DNA from: Anagrus nilaparvatae
Lineage: Eukaryota > Arthropoda > Insecta > Hymenoptera > Mymaridae
DNA: 64,000 nt
Direction of reading: 5' to 3'
NCBI GenBank assembly: GCA_022575985.1
Contig: JAKSXM010000272.1
Coordinates: 3,658,001 to 3,722,000 of the forward strand
The notes under the pieces were generated by a model, which was not told the DNA's origin, made no database searches, and saw nothing but the letters and a program-made list of their open reading frames with translations. The position numbers and the translations under genes are program-made. Below, piece after piece: positions 1,011-57,287 of this stretch; within the stretch, counting starts at the first letter, position 1; each line of letters begins with the position of its first letter.

Positions 1011-1012
1011 AT

Positions 1013-2362
1013 ATGAAATTCAAGTCGGCCTTTTTATTCTCTGATACCGTCTTAAGGCAAACAAATCTCTATGATAAATTCAAAAAGATTTTTTCCGATT
1101 TTGAAAAAAATTCTAACATAACAATTGGTCTATTTAAGCCAAATTGTTACAATTTGACAATTATTTTTTTTTATTATAAAAAAAATGACATTGAAATCAC
1201 AAATCAAAAAGCTGATGCCAATAAAGATCATCCTTATTTCTCTCTCGATGCTGTCGAAGATTTATATTATAATCTTATGGGCCAGTTTCTTGAGCTCAAA
1301 GATGAAATTTCAAGAAATTCTTCGCTCAATTCATCTCAATCAAATGACAATTCTCATGACTCTAACTATACTTCAAATTCAAGAACGGTCGTTATCTCAA
1401 ATAGAAGATTACCACCTATTCCTATACCAAATTTTAACGGCGATTTCAAGGAGTGCGTTCCATTCAGAGATTTATTTCAAGAAGTAGTAGTTAAATCAAA
1501 TTATTCATCAGCGGAAAAATTAACCTTCTTAAAAAACTCTTTAAAAAATGAACCCTTACTTATGATTAAAAATTTATCAGTTTCAGAAGGACAGTTTGAG
1601 ACAGAAATTTGGCAAAAATTACTCAATCGTTACAACAACGACAAGATCACAATCTACTCTCATGTCAACAATCTGTTAAATTTAAAGCCTATGACCATCG
1701 AATCAGACGCTCAACTTAGGAAACTTATCAACGAAACCATCAGCAACGTGGAATCATTAAGAATGCTCGATGCACCTGTAGCTCATTGGGATTACTTGCT
1801 GATTCCTATGACGGTCAACAGACTAGACAACGTCACAAGAAGAGACTGGGAAGATCTCACTGGCGATGATGCCAAGCCTGCGACCTTCGATCAACTTCAG
1901 AAGTTTTTGAAACGCAGAGTAAGAACTTTGGATTCTGTGCAGCGATCTTCAAACTGTTCACGCAACTCTCAAAATAAAGATAATTCACAAGGTCGTAAGG
2001 ATAATTTTAATACTACTAATCCTAAGTCTAATACAATTAAAGCTCATAATTCCAATAAGGTTGATTCTAGTAAATCTAGCTATTCTAAAAGAAATATTAA
2101 ATGTTATTTATGTAATGACAATCATTTCATATCTTATTGTAATGTCTTCAAAGAAAAATCTCCTTCTGAACGATATGATTTTGTGCTGTCTTCTAAATTA
2201 TGTCATAATTGTTTAGGGAAACATCTAACCAAGGATTGCAGAATCCAGAAAATTTGTACTATCTGCCGATCTCAACATCACACACTCATACACGATTCGT
2301 GCATTAAGTCTACAAACAACCAGGCATCATCTGAGTCAGCAGGCAATTCCAACACTTCTTAA
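1013..2362 (+). CDS. BEL/Pao retrotransposon Gag (N-terminus probably incomplete)
   Basis: The 449-residue frame is the structural Gag polyprotein of a BEL/Pao LTR retrotransposon. Residues about 130-305 have the DUF1759 pattern (P-I-P-x-F-N-G-D start, then L-K-N-S-L and L-x-x-R-Y-N-N). Three zinc-knuckle-like clusters follow from residue 364 (C-Y-L-C..C, C-H-N-C..C, C-T-I-C..C). The N-terminal 100 residues are unlike usual family members, and the frame begins directly where flanking repeat A stops, so the true start and 5' LTR are probably lost. It ends in TAA, and a second in-frame TAG lies two codons later. Pol continues in the same frame, so these are most simply decay from C-to-T changes. 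Confidence 0.8.
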   Translation: MKFKSAFLFSDTVLRQTNLYDKFKKIFSDFEKNSNITIGLFKPNCYNLTIIFFYYKKNDIEITNQKADANKDHPYFSLDAVEDLYYNLMGQFLELKDEISRNSSLNSSQSNDNSHDSNYTSNSRTVVISNRRLPPIPIPNFNGDFKECVPFRDLFQEVVVKSNYSSAEKLTFLKNSLKNEPLLMIKNLSVSEGQFETEIWQKLLNRYNNDKITIYSHVNNLLNLKPMTIESDAQLRKLINETISNVESLRMLDAPVAHWDYLLIPMTVNRLDNVTRRDWEDLTGDDAKPATFDQLQKFLKRRVRTLDSVQRSSNCSRNSQNKDNSQGRKDNFNTTNPKSNTIKAHNSNKVDSSKSSYSKRNIKCYLCNDNHFISYCNVFKEKSPSERYDFVLSSKLCHNCLGKHLTKDCRIQKICTICRSQHHTLIHDSCIKSTNNQASSESAGNSNTS

Positions 2363-2407
2363 TCTTAGCAAATCAATTCCGTTGTTTCTTCTGCGACTGC
2401 TGCTCAC

Positions 2408-5400: not shown

Positions 5401-6303
5401 GGCGTCGACTACGCTGGTCCCATTTTAATGAGAACAACTCCAGGAAGAGGTCACAAATCATACAAGGGATACATTGTGGTATTCGTTTGTTTTTCAACTA
5501 AAGCTATTCATTTGGAGGCTGTTTCTGGTTACGATACACATCATTTTATGTTAGCTTTTAGTAGATTCACATCAAGAAGGGGTTATTGTAATCACATTTA
5601 TTCTGATTGTGGTACTAATTTCGTTGGAGCTTCTTCTGAACTCAGTCGTTTATTTTCTGAAAAGCCTGCTTTTTCTAAAAATTTGATTCATCAGCTTCTT
5701 TAAAAGTCCAATGGCATTTCAACCCACCTGCTAGCCCTCATTTCGGCGGGTTATGGGAATCTGCAGTTCGTTCAACAAATTATCATCTGAAACGTGTCAT
5801 TGGAGAGACGACGTTGACTTATGAAGAGCTGAATACTTTATTGTATTCTGTCGAAGCCTGTCTCAATTCGCGACCGCTCTGTCCTATAAGCGATGATGCT
5901 AACGACTTAACATATCTAACTCCATCTCATTTTTTACTAGGTAAAAGTCTCGTCACAACGCCTGATGAATATCTATTTGATCAATCAATTTGACTTCTCA
6001 AGCGATGGAAGCTTCTACATCAATTTCAAAATGATTTCTGGACCAGTTGGAAAAGGGATTATATTCAGTCTATACAGCTTTGTTCAAAGTGGTTAAAACC
6101 ATCTCCAAATGTTAAACTTGGGTCCATGGTCTTGATCAGAAGCGAAAATTCATCTCCAGCTCGATGACCTCTAGGACGTGTTACACAAATTCATCCAGGA
6201 TCATATGGGGTTGTCAGAGTCGTAACTGTCAAAACTGCTCAAAGTTCTTACAAGAGACCTATCGTTAAATTAGTTTTACTACCAATTGAATCCAATTGTC
6301 AAT
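2408..6303 (+). pseudogene. BEL/Pao Pol polyprotein (protease, RT, RNase H, integrase), broken
   Basis: Domains appear in BEL/Pao order. The first is an aspartic protease/DUF1758 segment with active-site-like A-L-I-D-P-C in place of D-S-G and the family word L-L-G-W-I-I (2408-3118). Reverse transcriptase follows with R-V-V-F-N-G-S, A-D-I-Q-K-M-Y and Y-V-D-D near 3699. RNase H-like H-T-F-A-D-T-S is near 4200. The integrase zinc region (C-I-K-C near 5310) and the core words V-G-V-D-Y-A-G-P and S-D-C-G-T-N-F-V-G come next. A C-terminal segment with F-G-G-L-W-E-S-A-V and R-P-L-C-P-I sits in another frame after about 5680. At least five stops or frameshifts (near 3118, 3300, 3574, 4404, 4650, 5700) make it non-functional. 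The reading frame ends at the TAA near 6303, just before the polypurine tract. Confidence 0.85.
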
Positions 6304-21130: not shown

Positions 21131-21689
21131 TTATAACCGGTTTGTGTAAACACAACCTAAATGCATGGAACATGTTTACTTCCAAATGAGGACTAGATAT
21201 AATACAAATGTTACTCAACATTACAATACAATTTTCTATTGTTGTAATTTGTAATTATTACCTTACTAGTTGTTAAGATTTTAAACCCAAACTATTTTGA
21301 TTCCCTAAACCTGAATTATTATAAGTCCCTGAACCTGAATTATTCCAAGTCCCTAGATCGATATTATTCTAAGTCCATAAACCTGTATTATCCTAAGTCC
21401 TTAAGCCCAGATTTTTCAAAGTCTTTTAATAGTATTTTATTTATTTATATATACTTACCTAATTATTCTAAGTCTTATTTGACCCCCCCCCTTAAATAGG
21501 ACAAATTTGACCCCCCCCCCCTTAAAAAGGACAAATTTTACCCCCCCTTAAATAGGACAAATTTTACCCCCCCCCCCCTTAAATAGGACAAATTTGACCC
21601 CCCCCCCCCTTAAAAAGGACAAATTTGACCCCCCCCCTTAATTTTCAAGTTCTGAAGTACCCCCTCCCTATAAACATGTTCCATGTTAA
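21131..21689 (+). mobile_element. Minisatellite-bearing element bounded by CATGGAACATGTT (copy 1)
   Basis: It starts TTATAACCGGTTTGTGTAA, with ATGCATGGAACATGTTTAC 30 bp in, and ends AAACATGTTCCATGTTAA, so the inner ends are inverted. Between them lie ~27-bp units around CCTGAATTATTCCAAGTCCC (21290-21425) and ~31-bp C-rich units GACCCCCCCCCCTTAAATAG (21480-21640). A second copy with different internal units lies at 42027-42752. Confidence 0.7.
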
Positions 21690-22030
21690 AAAAAATTCGC
21701 TCACACCTAAAGAATTTGAAATTTGGTACGATGCTAAGCATAGCGAAGAATGTATGCAGAACCACAATGGAAGTGCGGGAAATATGGAGGTTGACGGAGA
21801 CATTGAAATGTTCCATAGATCCAAAAAATTACACGATGCAAAGTATATAAATTACATTGGCGATGGTGACTCGAAAACATTTACTAATTTACTCAAAAAA
21901 ATATATATGATGATGGTAGCGTTATCAATAAACTTGAATGCGTACTTCACGTGGGAAAAGGTATGTTCAAAAGACTCAAAGATGTAAAAAAGTGTTTGCC
22001 CCATGAAGAAAAATTAATTTTAATTCAAGA
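21690..22030 (+). pseudogene. Mutator-like transposase, central part, frameshifted
   Basis: This encodes part of an arthropod-type Mutator-like transposase: F-E-I-W then E-C-M-Q-N-H-N-G-S-A-G-N-M-E and Y-I-G-D-G-D-S-K. After a frameshift near 21905 it continues K-L-E-C-V-x-H-V-G-K and F-K-R-L-K. The pattern (NH-x-GSAG-x-ME, GDGDSK, EC-x2-HV-x-K) is the family core. The sequence stops abruptly at the R1 insertion. The C-terminal continuation is found 16 kb away at 38285-40126. The N-terminal part is missing, its place taken by the CATGGAACATGTT element. Residues read downstream in the same open frame belong to antisense R1 3' sequence. Confidence 0.65.
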
Positions 22031-22301: not shown

Positions 22302-23825
22302 CTACGAGAGGAAACCTTCCTCCTTTTTTCCAATCAGTGTCGCCCGTACGTACTCTGCCACACTGTACCAGTTAGCGGCAATGCGCAGCATTTCCGGGAC
22401 GACTACTTCCGGCCTCCATTCATCGAAGGGCGGTCGCCCTTCAGCGAAGCGAGGACACCCAAAAAAGGTGTGCTCAGCGGTATCCAGCTCACCCGGGCAA
22501 TGCAAGCATTCCGGAGATGTCACCTTGCTCCACTTGAAAAGCATATCGCGGAAATAACCATGACCAGTTAGGAACTGTGTGAGGTAGAAGTCTACCTCTC
22601 CATGATCACGGTTCATCCAGCTTTCCAAATCGATGATAAGGCGGTGCGTCCAACGTCCCCTCGGTTCACCATTCCACCTATACTGCCAACATTCCATTGT
22701 GCGGGAGCGAGCGCGAACGGAAGCTACGTCGCGCTCTTCTTCCCCACGGTTATAGATCGCCTGCCTTTCCAAGGCAAGCAGGTCGATGGGAATCACCCGA
22801 GCCACCACCTGGATCGCTGGCTCTGATACTGTCTTGTACGAGCAAGCGATTCGAAGTGCCCCCTGCCTCTGTACTGCCTTTAGTTTCTTGCAATACTTTT
22901 TTATGCGGACATTATCCACCCACACCTCTGCACCGTAGAGCAAGATGGAGTTAACTGTCGTCATCAACAGCCTCCTCTTCTCAGATCTGGGACCGCCGAT
23001 GTTCGTCATTAGCCACGAGAGGGACTTTGTCACCCGGCCAGCCTTTTCACAGGCCTGCTGGAATTGTCTATTGTAGGTCAACTTGTTATCCAAGAAGACC
23101 CCCAAATATTTGACCGACGGTTTGGTCTGGATCATAAGGGGATTACCACCGTCATCAAAGCTGATGCCGAATATGGTATCAACCCTTCTCCGGGTCAGAA
23201 GGACAATCTCCGTTTTCGGGACTGCCAGTCTCAGTCCGTGATCCGAAATCCAGCTATTGATAAGGCGCATGGCCTCATCCAAGGTATTCTGCTGGTCCTC
23301 TGGCTCTCGAGCTGTTATGGTTAGAGCAACGTCATCCGCGTATCCGATCATGGAGCATCCATCCGGGAGCTCAATCTTTAGCAAGCCGTCGTAAAAGGCA
23401 TTCCACAGATCAGGACCCAGAACTGAACCCTGCGCTATGCCTGCGCTTAATACTTTACCTCTTGTGCCATCGAGCGTGTCCCAGCGCAGGTATCGGTCCC
23501 GGAGGTAATCTCTGAGTATATTTCTCAGATAATCCGGAACTCTGAATACCTGCTCGAGGGAGTGCAACATATCGTCCCACTTAGCCGAGTTGAATGCGTT
23601 TTTCACATCCAACGTGACAAGCAGGACGTCCGGTTTAATATCCGGCCGCACTTGTCTGGCCCTCATAACCACCTTCACGACCTGCTCGATGGCACCGATC
23701 GTGGAACGCCCCTCACGAAAGCCGTGTTGGTCGTCGCTAAGGTCACCCGCTTCCCTAATTGCTTGCCGCAATCTTCCTCTGACCATGCTCTCCATCACCT
23801 TGCCAATGGTATTTAACATACACAA
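22302..23825 (-). pseudogene. R1-type ORF2, reverse transcriptase and C-terminus
   Basis: The 507-residue open part holds reverse transcriptase blocks (H-G-F-R-E-G-R-S-T, L-D-V-K-N-A-F-N-S, A-G-I-A-Q-G-S-V-L-G-P, catalytic Y-A-D-D-V-A-L, K-T-E-I-V-L-L, V-K-Y-L-G-V). A C-terminal zinc motif C-L-H-C-x7-E-H-T-F-F-G-C follows. It is intact in itself but separated from the upstream ORF2 by the frameshift. It is clearly homologous to 51571-53883, but the protein differences show it is not the same recent subfamily. Confidence 0.9.
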
Positions 23826-23853
23826 TGGTCTGTAAGATGATGGAGATCCTGGT

Positions 23854-24222
23854 TCACCCTTTTCCCTTGCTTATCAGAGCCAGACGGGCCACTTTCCAGT
23901 CCCTTGGAAAGGCGCCTGCCACGAGGCACGCGTTAAACATGCCAAGCAGGAGACCAGGGATTACCTTTGCAGCCGCCTTAAGGGCTTCCGCGGGTATTCC
24001 GTCTGGTCCTGGCGCTTTCCCATTTTTCATTGACCTAATTGCCTGAAGCATCTCCGCCTCGATAAATAGCGGAAATTGCTCCCTTGGGACATCCAAAGCA
24101 GGGTGTTGTTGGTTTGGATGATCCGGGAAGAGAGCGTCCACTATTCTTTTGGTCGTTGCTTCATCCATCGTGTTGTCACATCCGGACTTAAGTTTGCCCA
24201 TGACAACCTTATATCCCAGGCC
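23854..24222 (-). pseudogene. R1-type ORF2, linker before RT
   Basis: This continues ORF2 after the nonsense codon, with the family words N-G-K-A-P-G-P-D-G-I-P-A-E and F-P-R-D-W-K-V-A-R-L. It ends at a one-base frameshift in the A/G run near 23855-23862, where S-K-G-K-G should lead on to S-Y-R-P-L. Confidence 0.85.
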
Positions 24223-25347
24223 CTACGGGTCGCTGTTGACATCATCTCTTAGGGACCGAAGACAGCGCGCTTTTCTGAGGCGGATAGCTTTCGCCAGCCT
24301 ATGCTTGGCTCCCTTGTACTCTTCAGAGCGCATAGCCAGCTCTGGGCGGCCATGCGCTCTTTGCCGTCTTCTGCGTGCGCCGTGACAGACCCGTCTTAGC
24401 TCCGCAATTTCTTCATTCCACCAGTACACGCTTCTTTTACCCTTCCAGGGCCGTTTACGCGGCATAGAGGCATCGCAGGCTTCCCTCAGAAGAGCAGTTA
24501 CCCTCTTGACAAGGGTCTCTGCCTCTCGCGGGGTGGTCGGTCCTCCATGCCAGGCTGGGATAGACGAGAACTCTTCGCGAAGATAATCCACAAATCTGTC
24601 CTCGTCCATCTTTGACACATTCCAGCCTAGTGGGCGCTTTTTGTACGGGGGCCGATTAGCAACCCTATCACGCACTTTGAAAGTGATGTAATTATGATCG
24701 CTGCCATTGGCTCCATCCATCACCCTCCAGCCACCCACTCTTCCTGCCAGCCCGGCCGAGGCAAAAGTGACATCAGGGATCGATTCGCCAAAGCCTGGCC
24801 TTACGTAGGTTGGATTGTTCCCAGAGTTCATGACCACCAGATCAGTTCTAGCAGCCATCTCTAGGATCAACGTTCCCCTACGGTTCGTGGTTGGCATTCC
24901 CCATTCCACGGCCCTGGCATTTAAGTCCCCAGCAAATATGATATTGCTAGAGACTTCCCTTATCGTTTCCTCCAATGAGGTCAGCTTTGCGGTGAACACC
25001 CCAATAGTGTCATTCGGTGACAAATAACAACTAATGAAAGTTGTATCACCGCACTTTGCCCAGACGTGGCAATTGCCTTTTCCATGTCGTGACATAGACG
25101 TCTGAGCACGACCTCGTAGCCATATAGCGCACCGGCCTGTGTCATCGGTTAACCAGAATTGCTGGTTCCTATTGCGAAGCGGCTCGGATAGCAAGACGAC
25201 GCTAGAGTCTGTCTCGCCTGCGAGCTGATCGAGCAAAAGGTCAGCAAGAATGGTTTTGTTCATATTCCCTTGCAGGGGGGGCTGCTCTGCTCCTAACATT
25301 ACCGATGACACTTTATCTTCCTTGCAGTAAGTGCCTCCCGATAACAC
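24223..25347 (-). pseudogene. R1-type ORF2, endonuclease part
   Basis: ORF2 probably starts at the ATG inside TAATG (25299). An earlier in-frame ATG at 25347 only overlaps ORF1. The AP-like endonuclease shows F-A-G-D-L-N-A-R, W-G-M-P-T-T-N-R-R-G, I-P-D-V-T-F-A and the terminal S-D-H-N-Y-I. Endonuclease of this kind nicks the target for reverse transcription. A TAG at 24225-24223 replaces the tryptophan codon seen at the same point in copy 2 (D-P-W-G-L-G-Y), so ORF2 is cut before the RT domain. Confidence 0.85.
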
Positions 25348-25440: not shown

Positions 25441-26186
25441 TCTGACTCTCTTAATTCCATAATAGTTGTGAAATATCACCGGTTACAATATTTTCAGATA
25501 TTAGTACTTTCATGGAATTAAATGAGGTATTACACTAAAAAAAAAAAAAAATATATATTGCATTTTCTTAAGTTTAAAAAATATATATTATGTCCTAAAA
25601 TAAAAAAAATTTTGGCGTTTTTTGTATTTTTTGGTGCCAAAAATTTTGAGAAAAAAATTTGAAAAAATTAAGTATCAGGTCCATAAAATTACTATAAATG
25701 ATATTTCTAAAACTAGTACTTCCACAGAAATAAATTAAGTACTGCGTCCAAAAAGAAAAAAAAAATTAGTATTTTTTGTAAAAATTTTGTGAAAAAAATT
25801 TTAGGAAAATAATTTTCAGAACCTTAAGTATCCAATTTGAGATATCATGTGAAAACCATACTTTCAAATACAAGTACTTTCATGTCATTATCAATAAATG
25901 AGGTATTACATCCAAATTAAAAAAAAAAAAAAGTAGTTTCAGATTTTTTGATAAAAAAATGTTTGGAAAAAAAATTAGGTCTTGATTCGATAATGGTTTT
26001 GAAATATCACTAGTTACAATATTTTCAGATATTAGTACTTTCATAGAATTAAATGAGGTATTACACCAAAAAAAAAAAAATATTGCAGTTTTTTTTATTT
26101 TTCTTTTTTTTTAATTTTGACAAAAAAAATTTTGAAAAAATTAAGTATCAGATTCAAAAAATTACAATAAACAAGGTTCTTAAAAC
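25441..26186 (-). repeat. Satellite array, inverted, first segment
   Basis: Reverse-complement monomers occur in the order C, B, A, C, B (boundaries near 25600, 25755, 25930 and 26085), the same higher-order arrangement as at 9.8-11.5 kb. It is cut at AAAACTA (26187) by the palindromic element and resumes at 30574. Confidence 0.8.
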
Positions 26187-26199
26187 TACACTGTTAAAA

Positions 26200-26440
26200 A
26201 TACCCGATTTTAAATTTACGAAATAATCGTAAAATTACGATTTTGTCGTAAATTTACTAAAAAAATCGAAAATTTACCATTTAAATCGTAATTTTACGAT
26301 CGATCGTAAATTTACGATTTTTTTGTAATTTTACGATTTGGAAATCGTAAATTTACGACAAATTCGTAAAATTACCACCAAATCGTAAATTTACGATTTT
26401 TATGGTAAATTTACGATTTTGTATTTGTAAATTTACGACT
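26200..26440. repeat. Terminal CGTAAATTTACG short-repeat block (left); inverted at 30315-30560
   Basis: The palindromic motif CGTAAATTTACGAT and variants recur about every 15-20 bp through the first 250 bp of each arm, next to the terminal CACTG. Such subterminal arrays are typical transposase-binding regions. That role is inferred. Confidence 0.75.
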
Positions 26441-29400
26441 GCTAGATTTGAGTATTTATAAGCCTAAAAACAACATTTCCGAAACTAAGGGGTAAGTACA
26501 AGTTTACCTTATTTTTTCGTTCCTAAACTCATATACGAGTAAAAACTAATTTTGGCATAAAATTTTTGTATTAACACTAAAATATCTAAATGGCATTAGA
26601 GAAGGTATTCTCATCTCAAAAGTTATTTTAAAGCCGTAAAAACTTTGTTTAGGAATTTCAAATTTTGTATACAAGCCACAATTGAAATAAACTAAAAAAA
26701 AATTTTAATATTAAATAAATTTTTTAATATCTAACATTTTTTACGTACATAAATATTAACAATTGTTTAACAAAAAAATTAGAACTCTTTTGTTTGATTT
26801 CTAAGTTAAAAAAATCTAAGGCAAAAGAGGAAAAAGTTAATTAAATTCAAATAAAAATTTTCGGAGCTTAAAAAAGGAGAGAAAATAAAAATCACTAAAA
26901 ATATGCTTTATTTTTGAAAAAGATTTTACAAGGGGAGTTCAATACATTCGGAAAACCAAATTACACCAAATGTTTATGGATAAGTTTATTTTGTTCAAAA
27001 AACATGCTGACTACCCTCCGTTCATTCCAATGTTCCTTCTGGGCCTAGAAACGCAGGGCTCAATGTTATAAAATAGGGTTTTTTGGTTATTTTCAACAAA
27101 ACGCCAAAATCTCACAAGTTAACCAAATTAATATCACTAATTCTTTCATCACTATAGCCAATTAACCAAACGGTCATTTTTGGCTAAAAATGACCAATTT
27201 TAAATTGCTGCCAAATTTGTAATTATTGACAAAAATGAGTTTTTCAGGTCTCGAAAAATTTGTACAAGCTTCAAATTTCCAAAACTTCTTTATTTTACCC
27301 TATTCAATTATTTTTTAACTAGACATGATAATTTGAAGTCACAGTCCCAATTTTACGATTTTTTAAAAAAGCTCATTTTTAATTAGTATAGGCCTGGAGC
27401 ATGGTTTTATTTTCGATTTTTTTTAAAAGTATGGCCATGGAATTTTTCGACGGTATATATAGTTTGTGGGGTCGCTGATGTTAGGTCATTTTTAACGTTT
27501 TTTTGCCATTTTTTGTTAAAATTTTTAATATATTACCATTTTTCTCACACTACACTAATGTTTTTTGGGTTTCTATACCTAATTATCATATAATATAGTA
27601 TATCTACTCATACAAAAAATAATGGTAGCCCATAATAGGGATTCTTAGGCTATTTTTCACGCTTTTTGGGCTAATTTTAGCTATTTTTATGAAATAATAC
27701 CAATTTTTATCTACAGCTTCTGTTTTTTGAGTATTTTAAGGTAGTTAAATACAAATATTATTTTTAATTTATCTAAAAACGCCGAGGTAGCCCATAAATA
27801 GGCACTTATAGGCTGTTTTTAACGTTTTTGGGGTAATTTAAGCTATTTTTATGAAATAATACCAAATTTTTTCTACAGCTTGTGGCTTTCGGGTCACTAA
27901 ACGCAAATAACACTTTTTTTTTAACAAATAATGGCCAGTGGTCCGTAATAGGCGATTCACGGGTATTCTCATCCTTTTAATGGTATTTTATAATACGTTA
28001 CTTTTTTTAAACGAGAAGTGTTATAAATTAATAATTTTCTAATTACAAAAAACGGACTACTAGCCCACAATAGGCAGTTTTGGATTAATTTTTCAGAATT
28101 TAAAAAAAAATAGTTTGAATACTTGCAAATGTTTTGTCCGTTTTTTGTAATTATAAAATTATAATTATAAAATTATAAATTCATAACACTACTCGTTTAA
28201 AAAAAGGAATGTGTTATAATATACCATTAAAAGAATGAGAATACCCGTGAATCGCCTATTATGGTCCACTGGACATTATTCGTTAAAAAAAGATGTGTTA
28301 TTTGCGTTTAGTGACCCGTAAGCCACAAGCTGTAGAAAAAAGTTGGTATTATTTCATAAAAATAGCTTAAATTACCCCAAAAACGTTATAAACAGCCTAT
28401 AAGTGCCTATTATGGGCTACTGCGGCGTTTTTAGATAAATTAAAAATAATATTTGTATTTAGCTACCTTAAAATACTCAAAAAACAGAAGCTGTAGATAA
28501 AAATTGGTATTATTTCAAAAAATAGCTAAAATTAGCCCAAAAAGCGTGAAAAATAGCCTAAGAATCCCTATTATGGGCTACCATTTTTTTGTATGAGTAG
28601 ATATACTATATTATATGATAATTAGGTATAGAAACCCAAAAAACATTAGTGTAGAGTGAGAAAAATGGTAATATATTAAAAATTTTAACAAAAAATGGCA
28701 AAAAAACGTTAAAAATGACCTAACATTGGCAATTACGCAAAATTGGACCAGGTTAGGTCAAAATGGACTTCGGATTTGGAAACAGCGACCCCACAAACTA
28801 TATATACTGTCGAAAAATTCCATGGACATACTTTTAAAAAAAATCGCAAATAAAACCATGCTCCAGACCTATACTAATTAAAAATGAGCTTTTTTAAAAA
28901 ATCGTAAAATTGGGACTGTGACTTCAAATTATCATATCTAGTTAACAAATAATTGAATAGGGTAAAATAAAGAAGTTTTGGAAATTTGAAGCTTGTACAA
29001 ATTTTTCGAGACCTGAAAAACTCATTTTTGTCAATAATTACAAATTTGGCAGCAATTTAAAATTGGTCATTTTTAGCCAAAAATGACCGTTTGGTTAATT
29101 GGCTATAGTGATGAAAGAATTAGTGATATTAATTTGGTTAACTTGTGAGATTTTGGCGTTTTGTTGAAAATAACCAAAAAACCCTATTTTATAACATTGA
29201 GCCCTGCGTTTCTAGGCCCAGAAGGCCCATTGGAATGAACGGAGGGTAGTCAGCAAGTTTTTTGAACATAATAAACTTATCCATAAACATTTGGTGTAAT
29301 TTGGTTTTCCGAATGTATTGAACTCCCCTTGTAAAATCTTTTTCAAAAATAAAGCATATTTTTAGTGATTTTTATTTTCTCTCCTTTTTTAAGCTCCGAA

Positions 29401-29728
29401 AATTTTTATTTGAATTTAATTAACTTTTTCCTCTTTTGCCTTAGATTTTTTAACTTAGAAATCAAACAAAAGAATTCTAATTTTTTTATTAAACAATTGT
29501 TAATATTTATGTACGCAAAAAAATGTTAGATATTAAAAAATTTATTTAATATTAAAATTCTTTTTTAGTTTATTTAAATTGTGGCTTGTATACAAAATTA
29601 GAAATTCCTAAACAAAGTTTTTACGGCTTTAAAATAACTTTTGAGATGAGAATACCTTCTCTAATGCCATTTAGATATTTTAGTATTAATACAAAAATTT
29701 TATGCCAAAATTAGTTTTTACTCGTATA

Positions 29729-30226
29729 CACTGAGAAAAAATGTAGAGGAAAATGTACATTTGCAGCTGGAAGATTTTACTATTAATTTTAGTAAAGTTA
29801 TCCGAAGAATTGAAAATAGTACATTTTACTATAATTAAGGGTAATTTTTCTTGAGTAAGATTTTCTACAAAATATTATTATACTCTCACTCTCTCACATG
29901 TGTATAACTTTAATTTTTTTTTTTTTTTTTTTTTTTAATTTTTTTTAATTATTTTTTTTTTTTTTTTTTTTAATTTTTTTTTATAATTTATATTTTATAA
30001 TTTATACAATTTTCATTCCTTATATAGTATCTGAAATCAAATTTTGTCACTTGCGAGAAAAAATATGTAAAATAAATTCTACTAAAATTAAGGGTAATTT
30101 TTTTTTCCTTTACGGGTAGTTTATAAAATACATGTTGGTAAAAAATAACATAAAACGCCATTTTGACAACTTCAAATTATTTTACTAATCAAAAGGGTAA
30201 TTTTTACCAATACAATTTTGTGAGTG
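29729..30226. mobile_element. Nested MITE (498 bp) in the right arm of the palindrome
   Basis: It starts CACTGAGAAAAAATG and ends with the inverse of CACTCACAAAATTG. TA flanks both sides (29727-29728 and 30227-30228). The left arm of the host palindrome shows the empty site (CTCGTATATGAG on that strand), so the insertion is proven by sequence. It carries poly-T tracts (29913-29982) and no gene. Confidence 0.85.
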
Positions 30227-30573
30227 TATGAGTTTAGGAACGAAAAAATAAGGTAAACTTGTACTTACCCCTTAGTTTCGGAAATGTTGTTTTTAGGCTT
30301 ATAAATACTCAAATCTAGCAGTCGTAAATTTACAAATGCAAAATCGTAAATTTACCATAAAAATCGTAAATTTACGATTTGGTGGTAATATTACGAATTT
30401 GTCGTAAATTTACGATTTCAAAATCGTAAAATTACAAAAAAATCGTAAATTTACGATCGATCGTAAAATTACGATTTAAATGGTAAATTTACGATTTTTT
30501 TAGTAAATTTACGACAAAATCGTAATTTTACGATTATTTCGTAAATTTACCATCGGGTATTTTTAACAGTGTA

Positions 30574-30620
30574 GTACTTCCATGGAAATAAATTAGGTAC
30601 TACGTTCAAAAACAAAAAAA
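30574..30620 (-). repeat. Satellite monomer B fragment between two insertions
   Basis: GTACTTCCATGGAAATAAAT is the continuation of the monomer cut at 26187. It ends in an A run where the LTR element is inserted. Confidence 0.75.
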
Positions 30621-30897
30621 TGTTGGAGTGTGGCGCTCTCTACCACATCATGTATATACTAAAGTAAAAGAAGGAAGGGACGCCGACTCTTCAGTGCTTG
30701 TATAGCAACCGTCGTATCGACATCGTTCTCTCTATATTGTATCGGCGTGTTCGACATTTTATAATAACTAATTATTAACTATATTTTAGTGTAATTAAGA
30801 CGTGATTATTAAGTTTAAGATTTAGACGTGAATAAACATTGAGTGTTATATAAAATATAAATAAGTGTTTTTATTTAAATAACCCACAAACCTAATA
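30621..30897 (+). repeat. 5' LTR, 277 bp
   Basis: It starts TGTTGGAGTGTGGCGC and ends ACCCACAAACCTAATA. I found no difference from the 3' copy when comparing base by base. Confidence 0.95.
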
Positions 30898-33800
30898 GGT
30901 CATGGGCCGCAGAATAACACGCTTTCCCCGCGGACGCGCGAGTGAAATAAAAAATAGCTCTCTTTTCTTTTACGTAAAAGAAAATTTTGGTGTGTGGTGT
31001 TATTTTTTTAAAAAAATAAATAAAAGATTATTTATTTAAAATATTTGGTGTTTTAGTGTGAATAAAATTTTAGTGTGAATTTTTTTTTCACATAACCAAG
31101 GAGAGAGGTTAAAAATGGCTGAAGGTAGAGAGGGTAAGATCTTTATTTTACGAAGCGGAAGTGGAAAAATAAAATGTGTGCATGATCGATCAAATTTTTT
31201 GTAGCCGGCAAAAATAGAAAAGAAAGAAAAGTTTTATTTTTTTTATATTTTCGGATATAAATATTAATTTAAATTTTAAAACAAAAATTTTGAATTTTTT
31301 TTATTACGCGTGTAGACGAGTTTCGACGCAAAATTATTTTGTTAAATGTGTACAAAATGGCCGTCGTTGACGACCCGAAGGCATGTTAGTGCAAATGAAA
31401 TTTTTTTTATCATAAAATTTTTTTGAAAATGGCGGAAAATTTTTTAAAAATTAATTTTCATTAAAATCAAAATTAATTTTAGAAATGTGTATGTGTGGGT
31501 GTGTTTAATGGCCAAAAATAATATTTTTATGTATTAATAAATGCATATGTGTGTGTGTGTGTGAGTTAATCACGTAACATATACATAAAATGTTAGCCGC
31601 GCATTTTAGACGCTACCTTTTTGGCGGTTAAAATTTATGAAAGTTATCAATACTCGAATATACATGTGTCCTGTATGTGAGAGTATATGAATAATTTTTT
31701 TTAAATTTTGGAGTTCGGAGTGTTTTAATTTTATGTACTATTTATTACATACATGTAAAAGACCAGGAAAATTGAAAATAGGATGAGTGGATATTTTATT
31801 ATGCGGAAACATTGTTTTGTATGTGTGTGTGTGCTTTTTTATATATGTGTTCTATATTTGAGGGCCATGCACAAAATGAACTATTTAAATTTTCGATGTT
31901 TGGATTTTTTTTAAAATTATTAAATAAGGCGTGATTGTTTGTCTTTTATATACTTTAAGTATAAAAAGTTAAATACATGCATATAAAATAAACATGCCCC
32001 CATAATTGATGTGAATAAACTTTTTTTTCACGAGGTGCGAATTTGTTTGTATGAGTGCTTGAGTGGTTTGAAGCGGATGCATGTACATGTAATCCATACT
32101 CATATTTGCATACAATTTTTATAGGGGTTCATATATGCGCTCGCTCACGTATGTGCACTGCGTGTGAGAGCGCGTGTATGCCTAACCTTAAATTTGATGC
32201 AAAAATTTTTTAGAATATTTTGTTCTATGTAACCTGACTGATGATAAAATTTAAAAATAATGCATTTATGAATAAAATTATTTAAATTATGGAAAAATTG
32301 ATGAGAATATGAAGCTATACCATTATATAATATTAAATATAATAGATGAGGCAGTATTTATACATGTATAAGAGAAGGAAATAAAGAGGTTTTTAAACAC
32401 AAAATAAATTAAATTTAACCTAAAAATTAAAATTATTAAAGTCTTAGATCTAAGCAAACATTAAATTTTTATAGTGACGTATTTAAAAATTTAATATAGG
32501 TACCTACTCACGATCATTAAATATTATGAAATTAGGATATTAAGATATTGTATTTGATCGAGATGGAATGTTTGAATTTTTCTTAACAAGATGTGTTAAA
32601 ATAAATTATAATCAAATAAATATTTATAAATATTTAAATATTTCTTAAATTCAACACTGCTGGTTTGTAGATACTGTAAAATTTTAATGTGTTCTTAATT
32701 TTTTATGTGTCTGCAAGGGTGATCTTTGATACTATCTTGTGTTCGGATGTAAAAGAGGTCATTCGCTTCTAAATTTATCATGCTTGTGTTCAGCTGATTG
32801 ATACAGAAGTCGGAAGGTTTAAATATTACAAGGTAAATAAAACTTAATATTTGAAATAAAAGAGGTCATAAATGAACTTCAGAATCATGCTTGTGTTCAG
32901 CTGATTTACTTAGAAGTTTATTTTCTTATTTTATATACCTATATGTGATTAAATGAAGATCAGAATTAATTTAGATAAAAGTTTTTGAATAGAAATAAAA
33001 AAAAAAAAAAAAAAAAAAAAACAGCCTTTACCTTTAAAATCCAGCGAATATTATTGGAGGGGGAAAATGAGATTACAAATGGAAATCAAAGATGAGATTA
33101 GAGATTGAAAATAGAAGAGAAATATCATTAAATTTTAGAAAAGTTTTAGAGACGTATTAAGAAAAGAATATATTAAGATAAGATGAGATGCTAATTTATT
33201 ATGTGTTAATGATGAGTTGACGAGAGATGTGTTCAAATAAACCCCACCAATTAAAATAAAATAGTTTACTAACTATATAAAAGTGTTGAACATTTATGAT
33301 ATTAAACTGCAGTTAAGTCATAAAAATAATAAAATAATAATTAACAGGATCCTGAATAAATAAATCTGATAATATTAGATATTGTAAAAGGCTGGAAATT
33401 ATTAAAGATGTTGAATGATTGAAAATTAAAATATATGACCAAGATACCAAAGAAGAGCATAAAATTCTTGATGTGGCAATTACACGAATTAAATTCGTAA
33501 AAATGATTATTGATGTGACTATTTTCAAATAAATTCTATTAAAAAGGCTTTAGATGCGACCATTTAGAAATAAATTATGATATTATAACATGTTTATCAA
33601 GTTTAATATATAATATTATACCTCCAGTAAGTGAAGTAGATTTTTACAGAATGTGAAAATATTTTTAAATAATTTTCAAAATGAGATATTGACAAATTAG
33701 AAAATTTGAAGATAAGGCGATAAGTTTAAATAATTGTATTAAGTATTTAATAATATTAATACATTGGGTTTATTACTTAATAATGTAAATAATACATAAG

Positions 33801-36800
33801 TCACAATACATAAATCACAACAACAATTAAGGATGATGAGCTTAAGATATTATAGATTGAAATAAATGCTGATCTGAGTAAATACAATTCAATAGATGTG
33901 GTATCAATATTTCTGAAGAGTAATATTAGTTTATTATCTGGTATACTTCTCATAAAGAAGTCAGATTACTTACTGAATTTTGCAAAAGGTGGAATGTCTG
34001 GGGCTTGCTCCGATTCTACCAAGGGTTAATTATCTATTACTTAAGAATTGAATGGCTTTATAGAATTCACTATCTTGTCAAAATCTATAAGCCAATATAA
34101 ATTTTTGTTCACAAATTAAATTTTCTTATATATGAGTTTTGTAGAACCTATATATTATAAACATTTGTTTTAATATATGTATATGTCTGAAAACTAAACA
34201 ATAAAATTTAAAAATTAGATTCATATTTTGATGTGATAGTTTAAAATGTGATCAAACCCTTATTCCTAAGATAAATGTTAATAAAATAGAAATTTAAAAC
34301 TTTATCTTGAGGTAAAATTATATGAAGGATAGTAATTTTGAATCAACAGATAAAAGATTTGGAAAATTTGAAGAATAAGATTTAGAATATTTCAATTTAT
34401 AGAATATATGAAAATTATTGAAATTAAATTTTCTTTTTAGAATTTAATTCGACTATATTTTAAAGATGAGAGTTCTTGTTTGGAAAACAAATTAACTGTA
34501 TTTGAAATATATATCTATTTATGTAATATAAATAATATATTTGATGTATTTGTTCTTCGAATAATGTAGAAATTATAATTATTGTAAAAATACACTAAAA
34601 TGGTTGTTGAAGATCGATGAAAAGATAAATATTAATATATTTGTTGCCAATAGCAAAAATGTTTTAAAATCTACGTTATAGTAAAATTTTTTTTACAACT
34701 GAAGTGAAAAGGAATGTGATACTTTACTAACAACTAATAAATTTATAAGAAGTGACTTATATCTGTCTAATGAAAAATCAAAGGATTTAATTTACTACGT
34801 TTATTTAACTTGTTTTTACTACATTGTTAGTAAAATAAAGTTGAAAACAATTTTATGACATATTGAATAAAAATGACAACTGAGTACTTAAGATCGGAGG
34901 GAGTATTTATACTAAATTATGAATGATTTAGATGTTTCTTTAGCAATTAAGAATTGAATATTTTAAATTCATATCCAAATTCATACCTCAGTATGATATT
35001 CTTTATATTTATTTTGTGGATATATATTAAAATATACAAATGAATTAAATATGGTGACCTTTATAAAGATAAAATAGATAAGAGTATACAATAAATTTTA
35101 AGAGCAAATTCTAATCATAAAATCGTCTACTTATATTTTTGAAGCGAGAAATAAAGATGAGTTCAAAATAAAATTTTACAATAAATTGAGATAGATTTTA
35201 ATTTTGAAGTTATCCTAACTTGTATATAATTAATATTTGTGATGAGCTATTCTTAATGACGAAGAAAGGTTACAAGACTGAACTTGAATTAAAATTCTTC
35301 AGGAAATAAAATTAATTTATTTGTATAACTATGAAGAGATGAGTTTTATTAAAAGAAATGAACGTTTTAAGATGTGTCAAAAATTTTAAATTATCTTCTA
35401 AGCTAAAGACTAGATGAGTACAAAATTAAATAGGCAATTATGAATTAAATATATGAGTTAATACGTTATCAACTCGAAATCGACGATATTCTATGTTTAT
35501 TTATTAGAAAAATTATTAATCTCAACACCTAACTAATTTTTATATTGTGATAGTTTCTTCAAAAGTATAGACGAAATAAGGATGTGTTTGTGAAGTCCAT
35601 ATAGATATCACTAAAATATGGTATAAGACCAGATATTGACGTGTATTACCTGAAGTCAAATCAAGATATTTAATTTACTGAATATTTAAATAAATAGCAG
35701 AATAAGATGTGAAAATCTAATACCTTGTAGTCCTAGAACTATTATATATTGACGATTAGATTTTTCATAAATGATCATTAATGATATATGATTCGTATTT
35801 TAATATGAGAAAAATCTTTACCGGAGTTACATTTTAGATTTGAACTTCCTTGAGAATTTAAAACATGCTGACTGCATTGAAATAAACTCTAAACTTTAGA
35901 CATGTATTTATAAGTATTATTATATTAATGAAGTACTTTAGTGAATTAATTTCCCTTTGATCTGAATCAAGATAAGTTTATGAATATGTGATACTATTCA
36001 AACGTAGAAAAGATGATTCTCGAGAAGGTTTTGATTTAAATAAGGAAATTTGACTCATAAAATTTTGATGAGATATTTAAAGAGAATTATTTGAAATATC
36101 AAGAACGGAGGGAGAGTGTAAAAGAAAACAAAGTTAACAAAATTTTAATTAAAATCGAAAATTTTGTTATCTATTGATAAATAAAATTGATCAAAAATCT
36201 GATCATTATAATAAATTAATGCAATTTTTTAAAATAGATGGGGGGAGTAGATATTGTAGCAAGCTATGTCTTATAAAATTGCATATAATTTGTCTTTTAC
36301 AAAATGAATAGAAATCGTATATCATGTAAACTTGTAGAAAACTATTAATGAAATTAATCGATTTTAGGTAGCATAATTAATTTTTCAGATTCGAGAAAAA
36401 TAGGAAAGATGAAAATACTATATTTCAGAGGATTTTGATAATTAGAAAACTTAAGATTAGAAATCAAAATATTTTACAAAAATAAAATATTTAATGATAA
36501 ATAGATGAAATTTAAATTACAAGATGAATGGACGTGAAAAGCCTTTACTAACGACGTAGATAAATAAATTTAAATCTAAACTCTTGCAGTTCTTAACCAT
36601 GATAGAATTAGATGAGTCTCAAGAAATAGAATAAGTATCTTTCATTAAAGAAGATTAAGAATGATTTTATTTACATACTCTAAAAGTGGGACTAATTTAC
36701 CCATTAATTGATGACAATTTTAAAATTACTTATTAAAATTAGACGCAGCAATAATTTTGAGTAATAGTATGGTTCAGTTAAAATTAAACTAAAGAAAAGA

Positions 36801-37724
36801 ATTTTAAATTATTTATGATACACAATGTTCAAATATATAAAAATGATTTAAGAAGAGTCTTTAAAATGGCGTGAAAAAGTATAAAATTTAAGTCAACTCA
36901 GAAATGAATAGAATGGAAAGAAAGATATGTTTCCATAAGAATTTCAGAGAAATAAGATATTTTAATCATTTGAGTCTGTGAAAAGTATGAACAAATTTCT
37001 TAATGACTTAAGGAAAATGAAAGTTATATTAGACGAGACACATTAAAATTATATTATGACATTGGCATTAAATTGAAAACGTTTACAAAAATCATATGGA
37101 ATGAAATGATCCTTATTAAAGAAAATGGCTAATTATTATATTGCAAAAGGATTTTAGATGAGTACTGAAAATTTTAATGAAACTAAAATTAACTTTTTAG
37201 GAGACAACTAAGCTATTATCAAATATTTCATTTATTACTTTAAAGAAGTAAATCTGTAGCTTTGAGTTATATGTGTTTGAGTGTACATTCAAAACTAATT
37301 GGTTGCGAATATTATGAATTATAAAATAATTAATTGATAAGCAGGCTTGTATTAAGATTATTTTAGAACTATAATTAATCTGATAAATTTGTCAAGCGCA
37401 ATATTTTATGATGTGTTATATTAGAAAAGAAAAGTTACAAATACAGTTTCTTTAAACTGACGTCAAAACTAATAATAACGACTGTTTTCCTTGGTTCGAT
37501 GATGATATTACTTAATCTCGTAATTTTGTGATGTCTGTGTTAAAGATGTGTCTTAGCAATAAATTTAGGCGCGAAATTGATGTGAAAAGGATTGTATTCT
37601 AGAGTGTGTTGTAAAAGAGTGTTTTTGATTTTGATGAGCGAATAATATTTATTTGATATGCTTTTTGATTATTTTGTTTCAGATAAATAGTTAGCTGTTG
37701 GATGTGCTCGAGATCGGGAGGGAG

Positions 37725-38001
37725 TGTTGGAGTGTGGCGCTCTCTACCACATCATGTATATACTAAAGTAAAAGAAGGAAGGGACGCCGACTCTTCAGTG
37801 CTTGTATAGCAACCGTCGTATCGACATCGTTCTCTCTATATTGTATCGGCGTGTTCGACATTTTATAATAACTAATTATTAACTATATTTTAGTGTAATT
37901 AAGACGTGATTATTAAGTTTAAGATTTAGACGTGAATAAACATTGAGTGTTATATAAAATATAAATAAGTGTTTTTATTTAAATAACCCACAAACCTAAT
38001 A
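37725..38001 (+). repeat. 3' LTR, 277 bp
   Basis: Matches 30621-30897. The polypurine tract lies immediately upstream (37711-37724) and satellite sequence follows directly. Confidence 0.95.
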
Positions 38002-46974: not shown

Positions 46975-47569
46975 GTAAGTAATCAGTTTGATTTAAATTT
47001 TTTTATTAATTACTTATAATATATATTACTAATACAATGTTAGTTACTATAATACAACAGAACTTTTTAACTTAAAATAGTTACACAATATTTTAACTGT
47101 TAAAATTTTTTCTTATTCTATTTTTTGTTACTCTTGGAATAACGCAATCGTTAATGTCGATATTTTGAGGTAACTGTTAATAAATTACTTGTAATAGTAT
47201 AATATTCTATTGATAATTTATATTTATATTAGTGCCATTGTAATTATCAATTCTACAACTTTCTATATGAATACTATTCCATAACTTATAAAATGGTACT
47301 TTTAAACATACAAATATGGTATTTATTATTCCTAGCTTATGTAAAGTATATAATATGACACTAGTTTTACAAATATATCCAAAATAATTTAAAATGCTAG
47401 TACCAGTATGATACCAATCTGTTTTTCTTTTTTCTATGCAAATCGTCTCTAATAGTTAAAAGGCTATTTTCTGTTATTTCAAATGATGTCTTAGTTCTGT
47501 CAGTGTTATAACTTATTTGGAAAATTAAATTGTTTGCTGGCGCTAAAGACCATTGAATATTAGGCCTTC
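46975..47569. other. AT-rich stretch without recognised gene
   Basis: No motif or repeat could be assigned. Confidence 0.4.
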
Positions 47570-48327
47570 TAGGCCTTGAAACGAAGGGCTCAATGTTATA
47601 AAATAGGAATTTTTGGTAATTTTCAATGAAACGCCAAAACCTTGCAAATTAACCAAAGCTCTTCTGGTTAATTTCATTTTTTTGGTTTAAGTTTCACCTT
47701 TTATACGCTGTAAACCGTAATTTATTATAACTAATTGTCTCATCACAATAGCCAATTAACCAAATGGATACTTTTGGATAAAAATGACCATTTTTCAAAA
47801 TGCTGCCTAATTTGTATTTTCTGACGAAATTGGATTTTATAGGTCTGAAAAAATTTGTACAAGCTTCAAGTTTCTAAAACTTCTTGACTTTAACTTTTTC
47901 AATTATTCGTTAACCAAAACTGATAATTTGAAGTCATAGTCCCAATTTTACGATTTTTAAAAAAGCTCATTTTTAATTTTAACTTTGAAGAGCCATTTAT
48001 TAAAAATAAATCAAGGAAATGAGACGAGTAACAAATTTTTAGAAACTTAAAGCTTTAAAAATTTTTTTAGACCTATGAAACCCATTTCCGTCAGAAATTA
48101 CAAATTTGGTATCATTTTAAAAATTTGTCATTTTTAGCCAAAAATGACCGTTTGGTTAATTGAATATAGTGGTGAGAGAATTAGTTTTAATGAATTGCGG
48201 TTTACGGCATATGAAAGGTGATACTTAAACCAAAAAAGTGAGATCAATCATAAAAGTTTTGGTTATTTTGCAAGGTTTTGGCGTTTCATTAAAAATTCCC
48301 AAAAAATCCTTTTTTTTAAAATTGAGA
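47570..48327. mobile_element. Second, shortened copy of the giant-palindrome family
   Basis: The left part GGGCTCAATGTTATAAAATA, AACGCCAAAACCTTGCAAA, GTACAAGCTTCAA and GAAGTCATAGTCCCAATTTT matches 27050-27370 of the giant palindrome. The right part (48000-48327) is its inverse. It lacks the CACTG ends and the terminal CGTAAATTTACG block, so only the central part of each arm is present. Confidence 0.75.
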
Positions 48328-51222: not shown

Positions 51223-51241
51223 AACTATAAAACAATAAAAC

Positions 51242-51570
51242 AATGGTGGAGACTTCAACGCCAGGGCTCTGGAATGGGGGATGCCAACGACTAATCCCAG
51301 GGGACGAATGGTACTTGAAATGGCCACTAGGTGCAAACTAGTGGTCCAGAATAGAGGCAACAGGCCTACCTACGAGAGGCCGGGTTGGGGTGTCTCTATC
51401 CCGGACATAACCTTCGCTACAGAAGCTGCGTCCGGGAGAATAGGCGACTGGAGGGTGATGGATGATCAATACAATGGTAGTGATCATCATTACATCGCCT
51501 TCCGGGTATTGAAGGGAACTCACAACGACCTCCGTACAGGAGGCGCCCCCTGGGTTGGAACGTTCCAAAA
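51242..51570 (+). pseudogene. R1-type ORF2, endonuclease C-terminal part
   Basis: The frame G-G-D-F-N-A-R, W-G-M-P-T-T-N-P-R-G, I-P-D-I-T-F-A and S-D-H-H-Y-I-A-F is the second half of the AP-like endonuclease. A one-base frameshift near 51512-51520 moves the following R-P-P-Y-R-R-R-P-L-G-W-N segment to the frame of the long downstream ORF. The N-terminal catalytic half is missing by truncation. Confidence 0.85.
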
Positions 51571-55107: not shown

Positions 55108-55460
55108 TATAAACAAACAAAAGAGAGAAAAGAGGGCAACTCTTCGACCTAGTGCCAATTTTAATTATAAATTTTAATTTTTTTATCGTTCGTTATATTT
55201 TAATAATTAATTAAATGAAATTATTGGTCTTTACGAACAAATGATGTTAAATAATTTTTAATTTTTACTACTAAACGTGGTATACATTTAAATACTCAAC
55301 GTAGTAAATATCAAATATTTTTGTAGAAAATTATTGAAAATTTTTTTATCAATTTTCAATAATTTTTTTGGGTCTAAATATTGTGTAATGATATTATAAA
55401 CACAAATAAATTGAAAAAAAGTGGTATTAATAAATATTTCTCAAATCGAAAAAAATGCCA

Positions 55461-57209: not shown

Positions 57210-57287
57210 GGACGCCGTAGCTTAGTTGGCTAAAAGCGATTTCACCAGATATGAAAGAATCGTGGGTTCGAGTCCCACCGGCTCTGG
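57210..57287 (+). tRNA. tRNA-like unit 5
   Basis: Identical to unit 4 over the tRNA-like part. Confidence 0.45.

What the first reader, a model, noticed from the sequence alone, without database searches (positions are those of the whole stretch)
26189..30571. A 4.4 kb near-perfect palindromic transposon with TA target duplication
Seen: CACTG ends, TA on both sides, restored satellite sequence when it is removed, arms of about 1.87 kb and a loop of only about 80 bp, no coding capacity. Foldback MITEs are usually below 1 kb, and arms this long and similar are rare and unstable. Transcription through it would give long double-stranded RNA, so it could seed siRNA or piRNA. Mobilisation by a Tc1/mariner transposase is inferred from the CACTG end and TA duplication.
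Basis: partly seen in the sequence, partly recalled or inferred. Interest (0 to 1): 0.75.

Follow-up and report, generated by a model that had tools for sequence, protein, structure and literature searches.

The report
Large hairpin-shaped CACTA-like transposon family
The window holds one copy of a gene-less, almost perfectly palindromic jumping DNA element that has many sisters in the same genome; its insertion marks point to a CACTA-type mover rather than the mariner type first proposed, and its own transposase gene was not found.

Summary
A 4,383-bp element (26189-30571) has perfect CACTGTTAAAAATACCCG ends, TA on both sides, arms 97.2% alike over 1,867 aligned bases, a loop of about 79 bp and no coding sequence. 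Removing it restores the surrounding satellite. It is not an assembly artefact: the 18-bp end occurs exactly 140 times in the 489-Mb genome (control 0), and 20 of 21 copies examined have inverted outer arms.

The Tc1/mariner reading is not supported. The duplication is 2 bp but not always TA: of 29 end pairs read (sample enriched for non-TA), 28 have an exact 2-bp duplication (17 TA, 6 CA, 3 TG, 1 CG, 1 TT). With CAC..GTG ends and arrays of subterminal palindromes this fits the CACTA/Mirage/Chapaev (CMC) group. The autonomous partner was not found; one Transposase_21 gene between two family ends belongs to a nested 13.4-kb transposon.

New details: a 498-bp insertion in the right arm whose exact empty site survives in the left arm; a 56-bp loss in the left arm; an old palindromic relative at 47.6-48.3 kb; 110- and 149-bp derivatives. 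Double-stranded RNA production is possible but untested. Long-armed foldback transposons are known (Tetris, Galileo).

The parts
26189..30571 (.). Palindromic non-autonomous transposon, 4,383 bp (3,883 bp without the nested insertion and one TA)
   Evidence: Inverted repeats, arm alignment, family copies
26187..26188 (.). Left copy of the 2-bp target duplication (TA)
   Evidence: empty site in 3 of 3 satellite units aligned
30572..30573 (.). Right copy of the 2-bp target duplication (TA)
26189..26206 (+). Left terminal inverted repeat CACTGTTAAAAATACCCG (identity to the other end continues into the arm)
   Evidence: 140 exact copies in the genome, control 0
30554..30571 (-). Right terminal inverted repeat
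26211..26437 (.). Left subterminal array of 19-20-bp palindromic units (core CGTAAATTTACG), 8 hits with at most 1 mismatch; candidate binding sites of a transposase or accessory protein
   Evidence: 18 hits in the whole window, all in the two arrays; shuffles mean 0.28
30323..30551 (.). Right subterminal array, 10 hits
26189..28060 (+). Left arm; lacks 56 bp after about 27477 that two sister copies carry in both arms
   Evidence: copies L022 and L031
28061..28139 (.). Loop, about 79 bp, poorly alignable centre
28140..30571 (-). Right arm, interrupted by the nested element
28727..28782 (.). 56-bp stretch kept in the right arm and deleted from the left arm
   Evidence: a stretch of the same size and place is present in both arms of L022 and L031
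29729..30226 (.). Nested 498-bp element with CACT..AGTG ends and TA duplication (29727-29728, 30227-30228), inserted later into the right arm
   Evidence: The left arm (from 26514) keeps the exact empty site; imperfect TIR
25449..26188 (.). Satellite DNA left of the insertion (about 469-bp unit), which continues at 30574-30620
47565..48326 (.). Old, truncated palindromic relative: its pieces match arm part 27035-27384 at 80-87% and it is itself palindromic (77% over 747 columns)

Best explanation
The element is a non-autonomous, foldback-type DNA transposon moved by cut-and-paste by a transposase supplied in trans, most likely of the CACTA/Mirage/Chapaev (CMC) group. SHOWN: ends, 2-bp target duplication with pyrimidine-purine preference (TA most often), precise empty sites for this copy and its nested insertion, a family of sister copies, subterminal arrays, no coding sequence. 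INFERRED: the transposase binds the terminal CACTGTTAAAAATACCCG and, directly or through a partner protein as TNPA does in plant CACTA elements, the palindromic CGTAAATTTACG arrays. Because both ends are the same 2-kb sequence inverted, the element is nearly all terminal repeat. It probably arose from a longer element by loss of the coding middle and recruitment of inner sequence into the arms, and its arms are kept alike by recent spread and some arm-to-arm conversion. This copy entered a satellite array and later took a 498-bp secondary insertion and a 56-bp deletion.
For: Exact 18-mer end 70 forward + 70 reverse in the genome, 0 for the reversed-pattern control; with TA in front 52+52. Of the 100 (of 104) TA-flanked ends listed, 86 form 43 convergent pairs, 29 of 43 spaced 3.6-5.0 kb. 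Of 21 copies examined (20 fetched, chosen from the best matches to the window's first 412 bp, plus the window's) 20 have inverted outer arms of 341-1,927 bp at 92-100%. TSD: 28 of 29 end pairs exact 2 bp, 27 of those 28 pyrimidine-purine; one pair, L032 (TA/TA), was dropped because its two ends may belong to different copies. CAC..GTG plus 2-bp TSD is assigned to CMC in PMC6004678 (passages); CMCT elements mostly share CA..TG termini with 2-5-bp TSDs, TA in one lineage (PMC12730594, passages). Subterminal repeats bound by TNPA-like proteins are characteristic of CACTA (PMC2613891, passages). Derivatives of 110 and 149 bp keep only the ends and a few subterminal repeats and still have exact 2-bp duplications. 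Arms within a copy are closer than arms of different copies: mean 0.0144 against 0.0211 over 700 bp (0.0110 against 0.0154 over 345 bp), 20 copies, 0 of 2,000 permutations.
Against: No autonomous element with these ends was found. The genome has 56 Transposase_21 matches (that this family stands for CACTA-type transposases is my recall); none of the 30 loci returned with them (about 3.4 kb each) holds a family end within 4 mismatches. The only hit that I saw between two listed family ends (lists cut at 100 places) belongs to a nested 13.4-kb element with CCCGCGCC ends, and another Transposase_21 element here has CCCGGGGG ends and TT on both sides, so two local elements of that kind do not carry this family's ends. 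One TSD is TT and one pair is mismatched (AT/CA, L030). The subterminal binding role is untested. The within/between arm difference is modest, and a copy's own partner arm was nearest in only 7.5 of 40 cases over 700 bp (8.7 over 345 bp), so conversion is weakly supported.
Confidence: 0.8

Rival explanations
1. Non-autonomous Tc1/mariner (IS630) element moved by a TA-specific transposase.
For: TA duplication at this copy and at 17 of the 29 end pairs read (the sample was enriched for non-TA pairs), and TA before 104 of 140 exact ends. Tc1/mariner elements with TIRs of about 460 bp exist in aphids (PMC5490172, passages).
Against: 11 of 29 pairs carry exact non-TA 2-bp duplications (6 CA, 3 TG, 1 CG, 1 TT). 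None of the aphid mariner TIRs visible in the passages of PMC5490172 begins with CACT (not every row of its table was visible). A search for DDE_3 (PF13358) did not complete, so mariner transposases in this genome were not surveyed.
Confidence: 0.08
2. Assembly or sequencing artefact: a strand read back on itself, giving a false palindrome.
For: Near-perfect palindromes with a tiny loop are a known artefact form (general knowledge).
Against: The arms differ by 53 substitutions and 8 indel runs, the right arm alone has a 498-bp insertion with its own TA duplication, the outer flanks differ and rejoin a satellite unit, and 19 of 20 fetched copies at other sites, with their own flanks, also have inverted outer arms.
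Confidence: 0.01
3. The element is the outer shell of an autonomous long-TIR transposon of which C317:11368439-11386300 (17,862 bp, Transposase_21, 871-aa open frame) is an intact copy.
For: Both exact ends, TA duplication and subterminal arrays flank the gene.
Against: The inner 13.4 kb has its own ends (CCCGCGCC..GGCGCGGG) flanked by T runs that look like a 2-3-bp duplication, and its ends recur as convergent pairs at C161:5496020-5509465 and C95:356298-369783, each spanning the matching Transposase_21 hit. No exact family end is listed near those two places, although ends on C95 and C161 are listed (first 100 of 140 places shown).
Confidence: 0.03
4. A foldback element of the Mutator or P superfamily, like Tetris or Galileo.
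For: Same architecture: arms of 1-2 kb with tandem repeats and no coding middle (PMC4079207, PMC3688188, passages).
Against: Tetris has 8-10-bp and Galileo (in D. willistoni) 7-8-bp target duplications (PMC4079207, PMC4168063, passages); here it is exactly 2 bp in 28 of 29 pairs.
Confidence: 0.02

Closest known systems
CMC (CACTA/EnSpm, Mirage, Chapaev) non-autonomous elements, e.g. CMC-NA_1/CMC-NA_2 of wasps and their polydnaviruses (PMC6004678, passages seen)
   Same: CAC..GTG ends, 2-bp target duplication, no autonomous partner found
   Different: Those are ordinary MITEs; here nearly the whole element is one inverted repeat with arms of about 1.9 kb and an array of palindromic subterminal repeats
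Tetris foldback transposon of Drosophila virilis (PMC4079207, passages seen)
   Same: TIRs up to 1,735 bp containing tandem repeats, no coding capacity, autonomous partner unknown
   Different: 8-10-bp duplications (its authors suggest Mutator), about 220-bp repeat units
Galileo of Drosophila (PMC3688188, PMC4168063, passages seen)
   Same: Long repeat-bearing TIRs (1.2 kb in Galileo-G); transposase DNA-binding domain shown to bind sites in them; TIR growth by tandem repeats and recruitment of inner sequence; copies reduced to the TIRs
   Different: P superfamily, 7-8-bp duplications, transposase-derived copies known
CNEST and ESTA transposons (PMC12810828 section 8 read; PMC12730594 passages)
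   Same: CMC-type with 2-bp TA duplications
   Different: They encode a transposase and are fungal; CNEST has 33-bp TIRs beginning CACGG; no foldback form described in what I read

Membership tests
Tc1/mariner (IS630) | TA-only target duplication | tested here: not met
   11 of 29 end pairs have exact non-TA 2-bp duplications
Tc1/mariner (IS630) | DDE/D transposase of the family in an element with the same ends | not tested
   Search for PF13358 requested; did not complete
CMC (CACTA/Mirage/Chapaev) | CAC..GTG termini | tested here: met
CMC (CACTA/Mirage/Chapaev) | Short target duplication, 2-5 bp by lineage | tested here: met
   Exactly 2 bp in 28 of 29 pairs
CMC (CACTA/Mirage/Chapaev) | Subterminal repeats within a few hundred bp of both ends (CACTA) | tested here: met
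   18 hits, all within 26228-26437 and 30323-30551; shuffles mean 0.28. Binding by a transposon protein not tested
CMC (CACTA/Mirage/Chapaev) | Transposase with CMC DDE core encoded between the ends of a family member | tested here: inconclusive
   None found; the single candidate is a nested, separately bounded element.
Foldback elements (a structural class) | Very long TIRs with internal repeats, little or no middle, non-coding | tested here: met
MITE | Short (usually under 1 kb), non-coding, TIR, many copies | tested here: not met
   29 of 43 paired spacings are 3.6-5.0 kb; 4 of 43 are under 2 kb (110, 1,418, 1,436, 1,675 bp), and a 149-bp element was read besides

The most novel reading that the evidence does not exclude
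This is a CMC-type transposon lineage in which the palindrome itself is a selected feature: each end carries the same about 2-kb inverted sequence, arms are re-homogenised within each copy, a palindrome-binding partner protein recognises the subterminal CGTAAATTTACG arrays, insertion goes to pyrimidine-purine dinucleotides, and transcripts fold into kilobase hairpins that feed host small-RNA silencing of the family.
Probability: 0.15. Interest if true: 0.65.

Novelty: new variant of a known kind. Interest (0 to 1): 0.4.

Why it matters
It shows the foldback architecture, described in the papers I saw for Mutator- and P-type elements, in an element with CACTA-type insertion marks, with enough similar copies in one genome to study how long palindromes are made and kept alike. 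The 2-bp pyrimidine-purine target rule is a ready test for the missing transposase. If the copies are transcribed, they are natural sources of kilobase double-stranded RNA. The case also warns that a TA duplication at one copy does not prove a mariner mover, and that a transposase gene between two ends may be a nested stranger.

Tried and rejected
Exact 18-mer in other collections: 2 stretches in viral contigs and 6 in genome contigs. Two of these 8 (L001, L003) are also preceded by TA, but BLAST of the whole element against all 8 gave only a 20-bp match in L002 and L001 is phage-like without the other end, so I take all 8 as chance. A double subterminal motif in viral contigs: 0. A Transposase_21 gene as the autonomous partner: rejected as nested. 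Interiors of longer end pairs: L072 (8.0-kb pair, 4.1 kb of the middle read) holds 569 bp of family sequence and no stop-free stretch over 114 aa; L073 (7.7-kb pair, 3.8 kb read) holds a 363-aa stretch with a reverse-transcriptase match just under its cut-off (29.4 against 29.6 bits); L074 (12.9-kb pair, 1.8 kb read) holds satellite and part of an open frame that is widespread in the genome and has no Pfam match; L075 (13.4 kb, 1.8 kb read) holds 146 bp of family sequence and satellite; L076 (10.7 kb, 1.8 kb read) matched nothing that I compared. No domain over its cut-off in three ORFs of the nested 13.4-kb element. The first hairpin script reported 0 cross-arm pairs through an index error; one search corrects it. 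The control stretch that labels 57000-61382 was really window 58000-62382. first counted arm distances with L032 included (within 0.027, between 0.031); one search repeats it without.
Full report
WHAT IS THERE. The element at 26189-30571 was confirmed by inverted-repeat search and arm alignment. Its first and last 20 bases are perfect inverted copies and are flanked by TA on both sides. Leaving out the nested insertion, the arms agree at 1,814 of 1,867 aligned positions, and the loop is about 79 bp. Divergence is uneven: 29 mismatches in the outer 1,688 aligned bases and 24 in the inner 179 (Fisher p 6e-12). The longest stop-free stretch is 69 aa, and no Pfam family reached its cut-off in 6 of 6 frames read through stops.

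THE INSERTION IS PRECISE. The left flank plus the right flank with one TA reads straight through into the same sequence as 3 of 3 satellite units aligned from 9.99-11.1 kb, at 82-90% identity across the junction. So the element inserted into a satellite unit and duplicated TA.

A NESTED ELEMENT AND ITS EMPTY SITE. Bases 29729-30226 of the right arm are a 498-bp element that begins CACTGAG, ends GAGTG and is flanked by TA; its terminal repeats are imperfect. Cutting it out with one TA leaves a stretch found letter for letter in the left arm at 26514. The left arm is therefore a natural control for the right. The left arm in turn lacks 56 bp (28727-28782 in the right arm); sister copies L022 and L031 show a stretch of that size at this place in both arms, so it was most likely lost here.

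THE FAMILY. The window lies at C317:3658001-3722000 of a 488.7-Mb assembly in 393 contigs. The first 412 bp gave 1,047 candidates, of which 40 were scored; 40 of 40 match over their full length at 98-100%. The exact 18-bp end occurs 70 times forward and 70 reverse; the reversed-pattern control occurs 0 times. With TA in front the numbers are 52 and 52. From the 100 of 104 TA-flanked places that were listed, 43 convergent pairs could be made, with 14 ends left single; 29 of 43 pairs span 3.6-5.0 kb, 6 are shorter and 8 longer. I fetched 20 regions, chosen from the best matches, so they are biased to copies like this one. With the window copy, 20 of 21 show inverted outer arms of 341-1,927 bp at 92-100%; L032 does not, and its right end may belong to another copy. 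Many copies are less regular inside: the inner parts of their arms match at 83-97% or only in part.

THE TARGET RULE. Leaving L032 (TA/TA) out, 20 copies gave 16 TA/TA, one CA/CA, one TT/TT, one TG/TG and one mismatch AT/CA. I then read both flanks of 8 further pairs picked because they were not in the TA list, plus one 110-bp element with TA: 5 CA, 2 TG, 1 CG, 1 TA, all exact. In all, 28 of 29 pairs have an exact 2-bp duplication and 27 of those 28 are pyrimidine-purine; with an assumed 72% A+T the chance of equal dinucleotides is about 0.09 per pair. The 29 are enriched for non-TA pairs; among all 140 exact ends 104 are preceded by TA. A TA-specific Tc1/mariner transposase (established knowledge) does not explain CA, TG and CG duplications.

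WHAT IT RESEMBLES. CAC..GTG ends with a 2-bp duplication were used to assign wasp and polydnavirus MITEs to CACTA/CMC (PMC6004678, passages). A study of the wider group gives CA..TG termini in most cases and 2-5-bp duplications, with TA in one lineage (PMC12730594, passages). CNEST, a mobile fungal CMC element, duplicates TA (PMC12810828, section 8). Subterminal repeats bound by TNPA-like proteins are characteristic of CACTA elements (PMC2613891, passages). Here the motif CGTAAATTTACG with at most one mismatch occurs 18 times in 64 kb, all within about 250 bp of the two ends, against 0.28 in shuffles. Elements of 110 and 149 bp keep only the ends and a few such repeats and still carry exact duplications, which suggests, but does not prove, that these suffice for movement.

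THE MISSING TRANSPOSASE. Transposase_21 (PF02992; CACTA-type by my recall) has 56 matches in the genome, 48 of them over the cut-off, and none in 14 control genomes. One lies between two exact family ends 17,862 bp apart. That looked like the autonomous element, but the inner 13.4 kb has its own ends, CCCGCGCC..GGCGCGGG, its own 3.5-kb inverted arms (99%) and T runs on both sides that may be a 2-3-bp duplication. The same ends recur as convergent pairs about 13.4 kb apart at two other places, each spanning its own Transposase_21 hit. So it is a nested insertion. None of the 30 loci returned with Transposase_21 holds a family end within 4 mismatches in its 3.4 kb. Tc1/mariner transposases were not surveyed: that search did not complete.

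ORIGIN AND UPKEEP. The old relative at 47565-48326 is also palindromic, so the architecture is older than this copy. Arms within a copy differ less (mean 0.0144 over 700 bp) than arms of different copies (0.0211), below all of 2,000 permutations, but an arm's nearest relative was its own partner in only 7.5 of 40 cases; that is compatible with subfamilies plus limited conversion. Galileo TIRs are reported to grow by tandem-repeat expansion and by recruitment of inner sequence (PMC4168063, passages), and the same is the simplest model here. It is inference.

RNA. The single strand folds at -2,898 kcal/mol with 1,827 arm-to-arm pairs and a longest perfect helix of 279 bp; one control stretch of equal length (58000-62382) gives -862. 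No expression data were available, so the small-RNA idea is untested.

NOVELTY. Searches for foldback or palindromic elements with MITE, CACTA or EnSpm features and for CACTA/EnSpm with Hemiptera and MITE terms showed no such family in their listings, but one search listed 15 of 40 papers and 12 of 25, only titles, starts of abstracts and some passages were seen, and the library is open-access only. Repbase was not available. Long-armed foldbacks and CACTA-type MITEs are both known; the combination is what I rate as a new variant.

Noticed in passing
30621-38001: LTR element with two identical 277-bp LTRs (30621-30897, 37725-38001), inserted 47 bp beyond the palindrome's right TA in the same satellite; no stop-free stretch over 78 aa and no Pfam match in 3 forward frames read through. 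Looks like a young, gene-less (LARD-like) retrotransposon with strong G over C skew.
   Followed up: partly
L070/L071 (G000:C317:11370425-11383872), also C161:5496020-5509465 and C95:356298-369783: 13.4-kb transposon with CCCGCGCC ends, 3.5-kb inverted arms 99% alike that both carry the same 342-aa and (one residue apart) 114-aa open frames without a Pfam match over cut-off, and an 871-aa open frame with Transposase_21 in the middle. An autonomous-looking long-TIR element with duplicated open frames in its arms; further, more diverged end pairs 2.6-5.8 kb apart may be its derivatives.
   Followed up: partly
L068 2691-8870: Another Transposase_21 element, 6,180 bp, with CCCGGGGG ends and TT on both sides: two local elements with this transposase use CCC..GGG ends.
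   Followed up: partly
55131-58505: Two arrays of 446-447-bp tandem repeats, with 2 tRNA matches on the minus strand in one and 3 on the plus strand in the other.
   Followed up: no
22302-25347 (-) and 51239-53883 (+): GC-rich non-LTR retrotransposons (RVT_1 found in the tested one, 51.5-53.9 kb); one named relative among 120 listed hits, Nesidiocoris tenuis, 48%.
   Followed up: partly
1001-5703: Broken retrotransposon pieces with DUF1759 and Integrase_H2C2 domains, BEL/Pao-like by my recall.
   Followed up: no
21598-21984: Fragment of a Mutator-like transposase (PF20700).
   Followed up: no
L032 (G000:C317:12035141-12042000): The bases outside the left family end recur as their reverse complement outside a second end 5.9 kb away, with satellite between: an inverted duplication that seems to include flanking DNA.
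   Followed up: no
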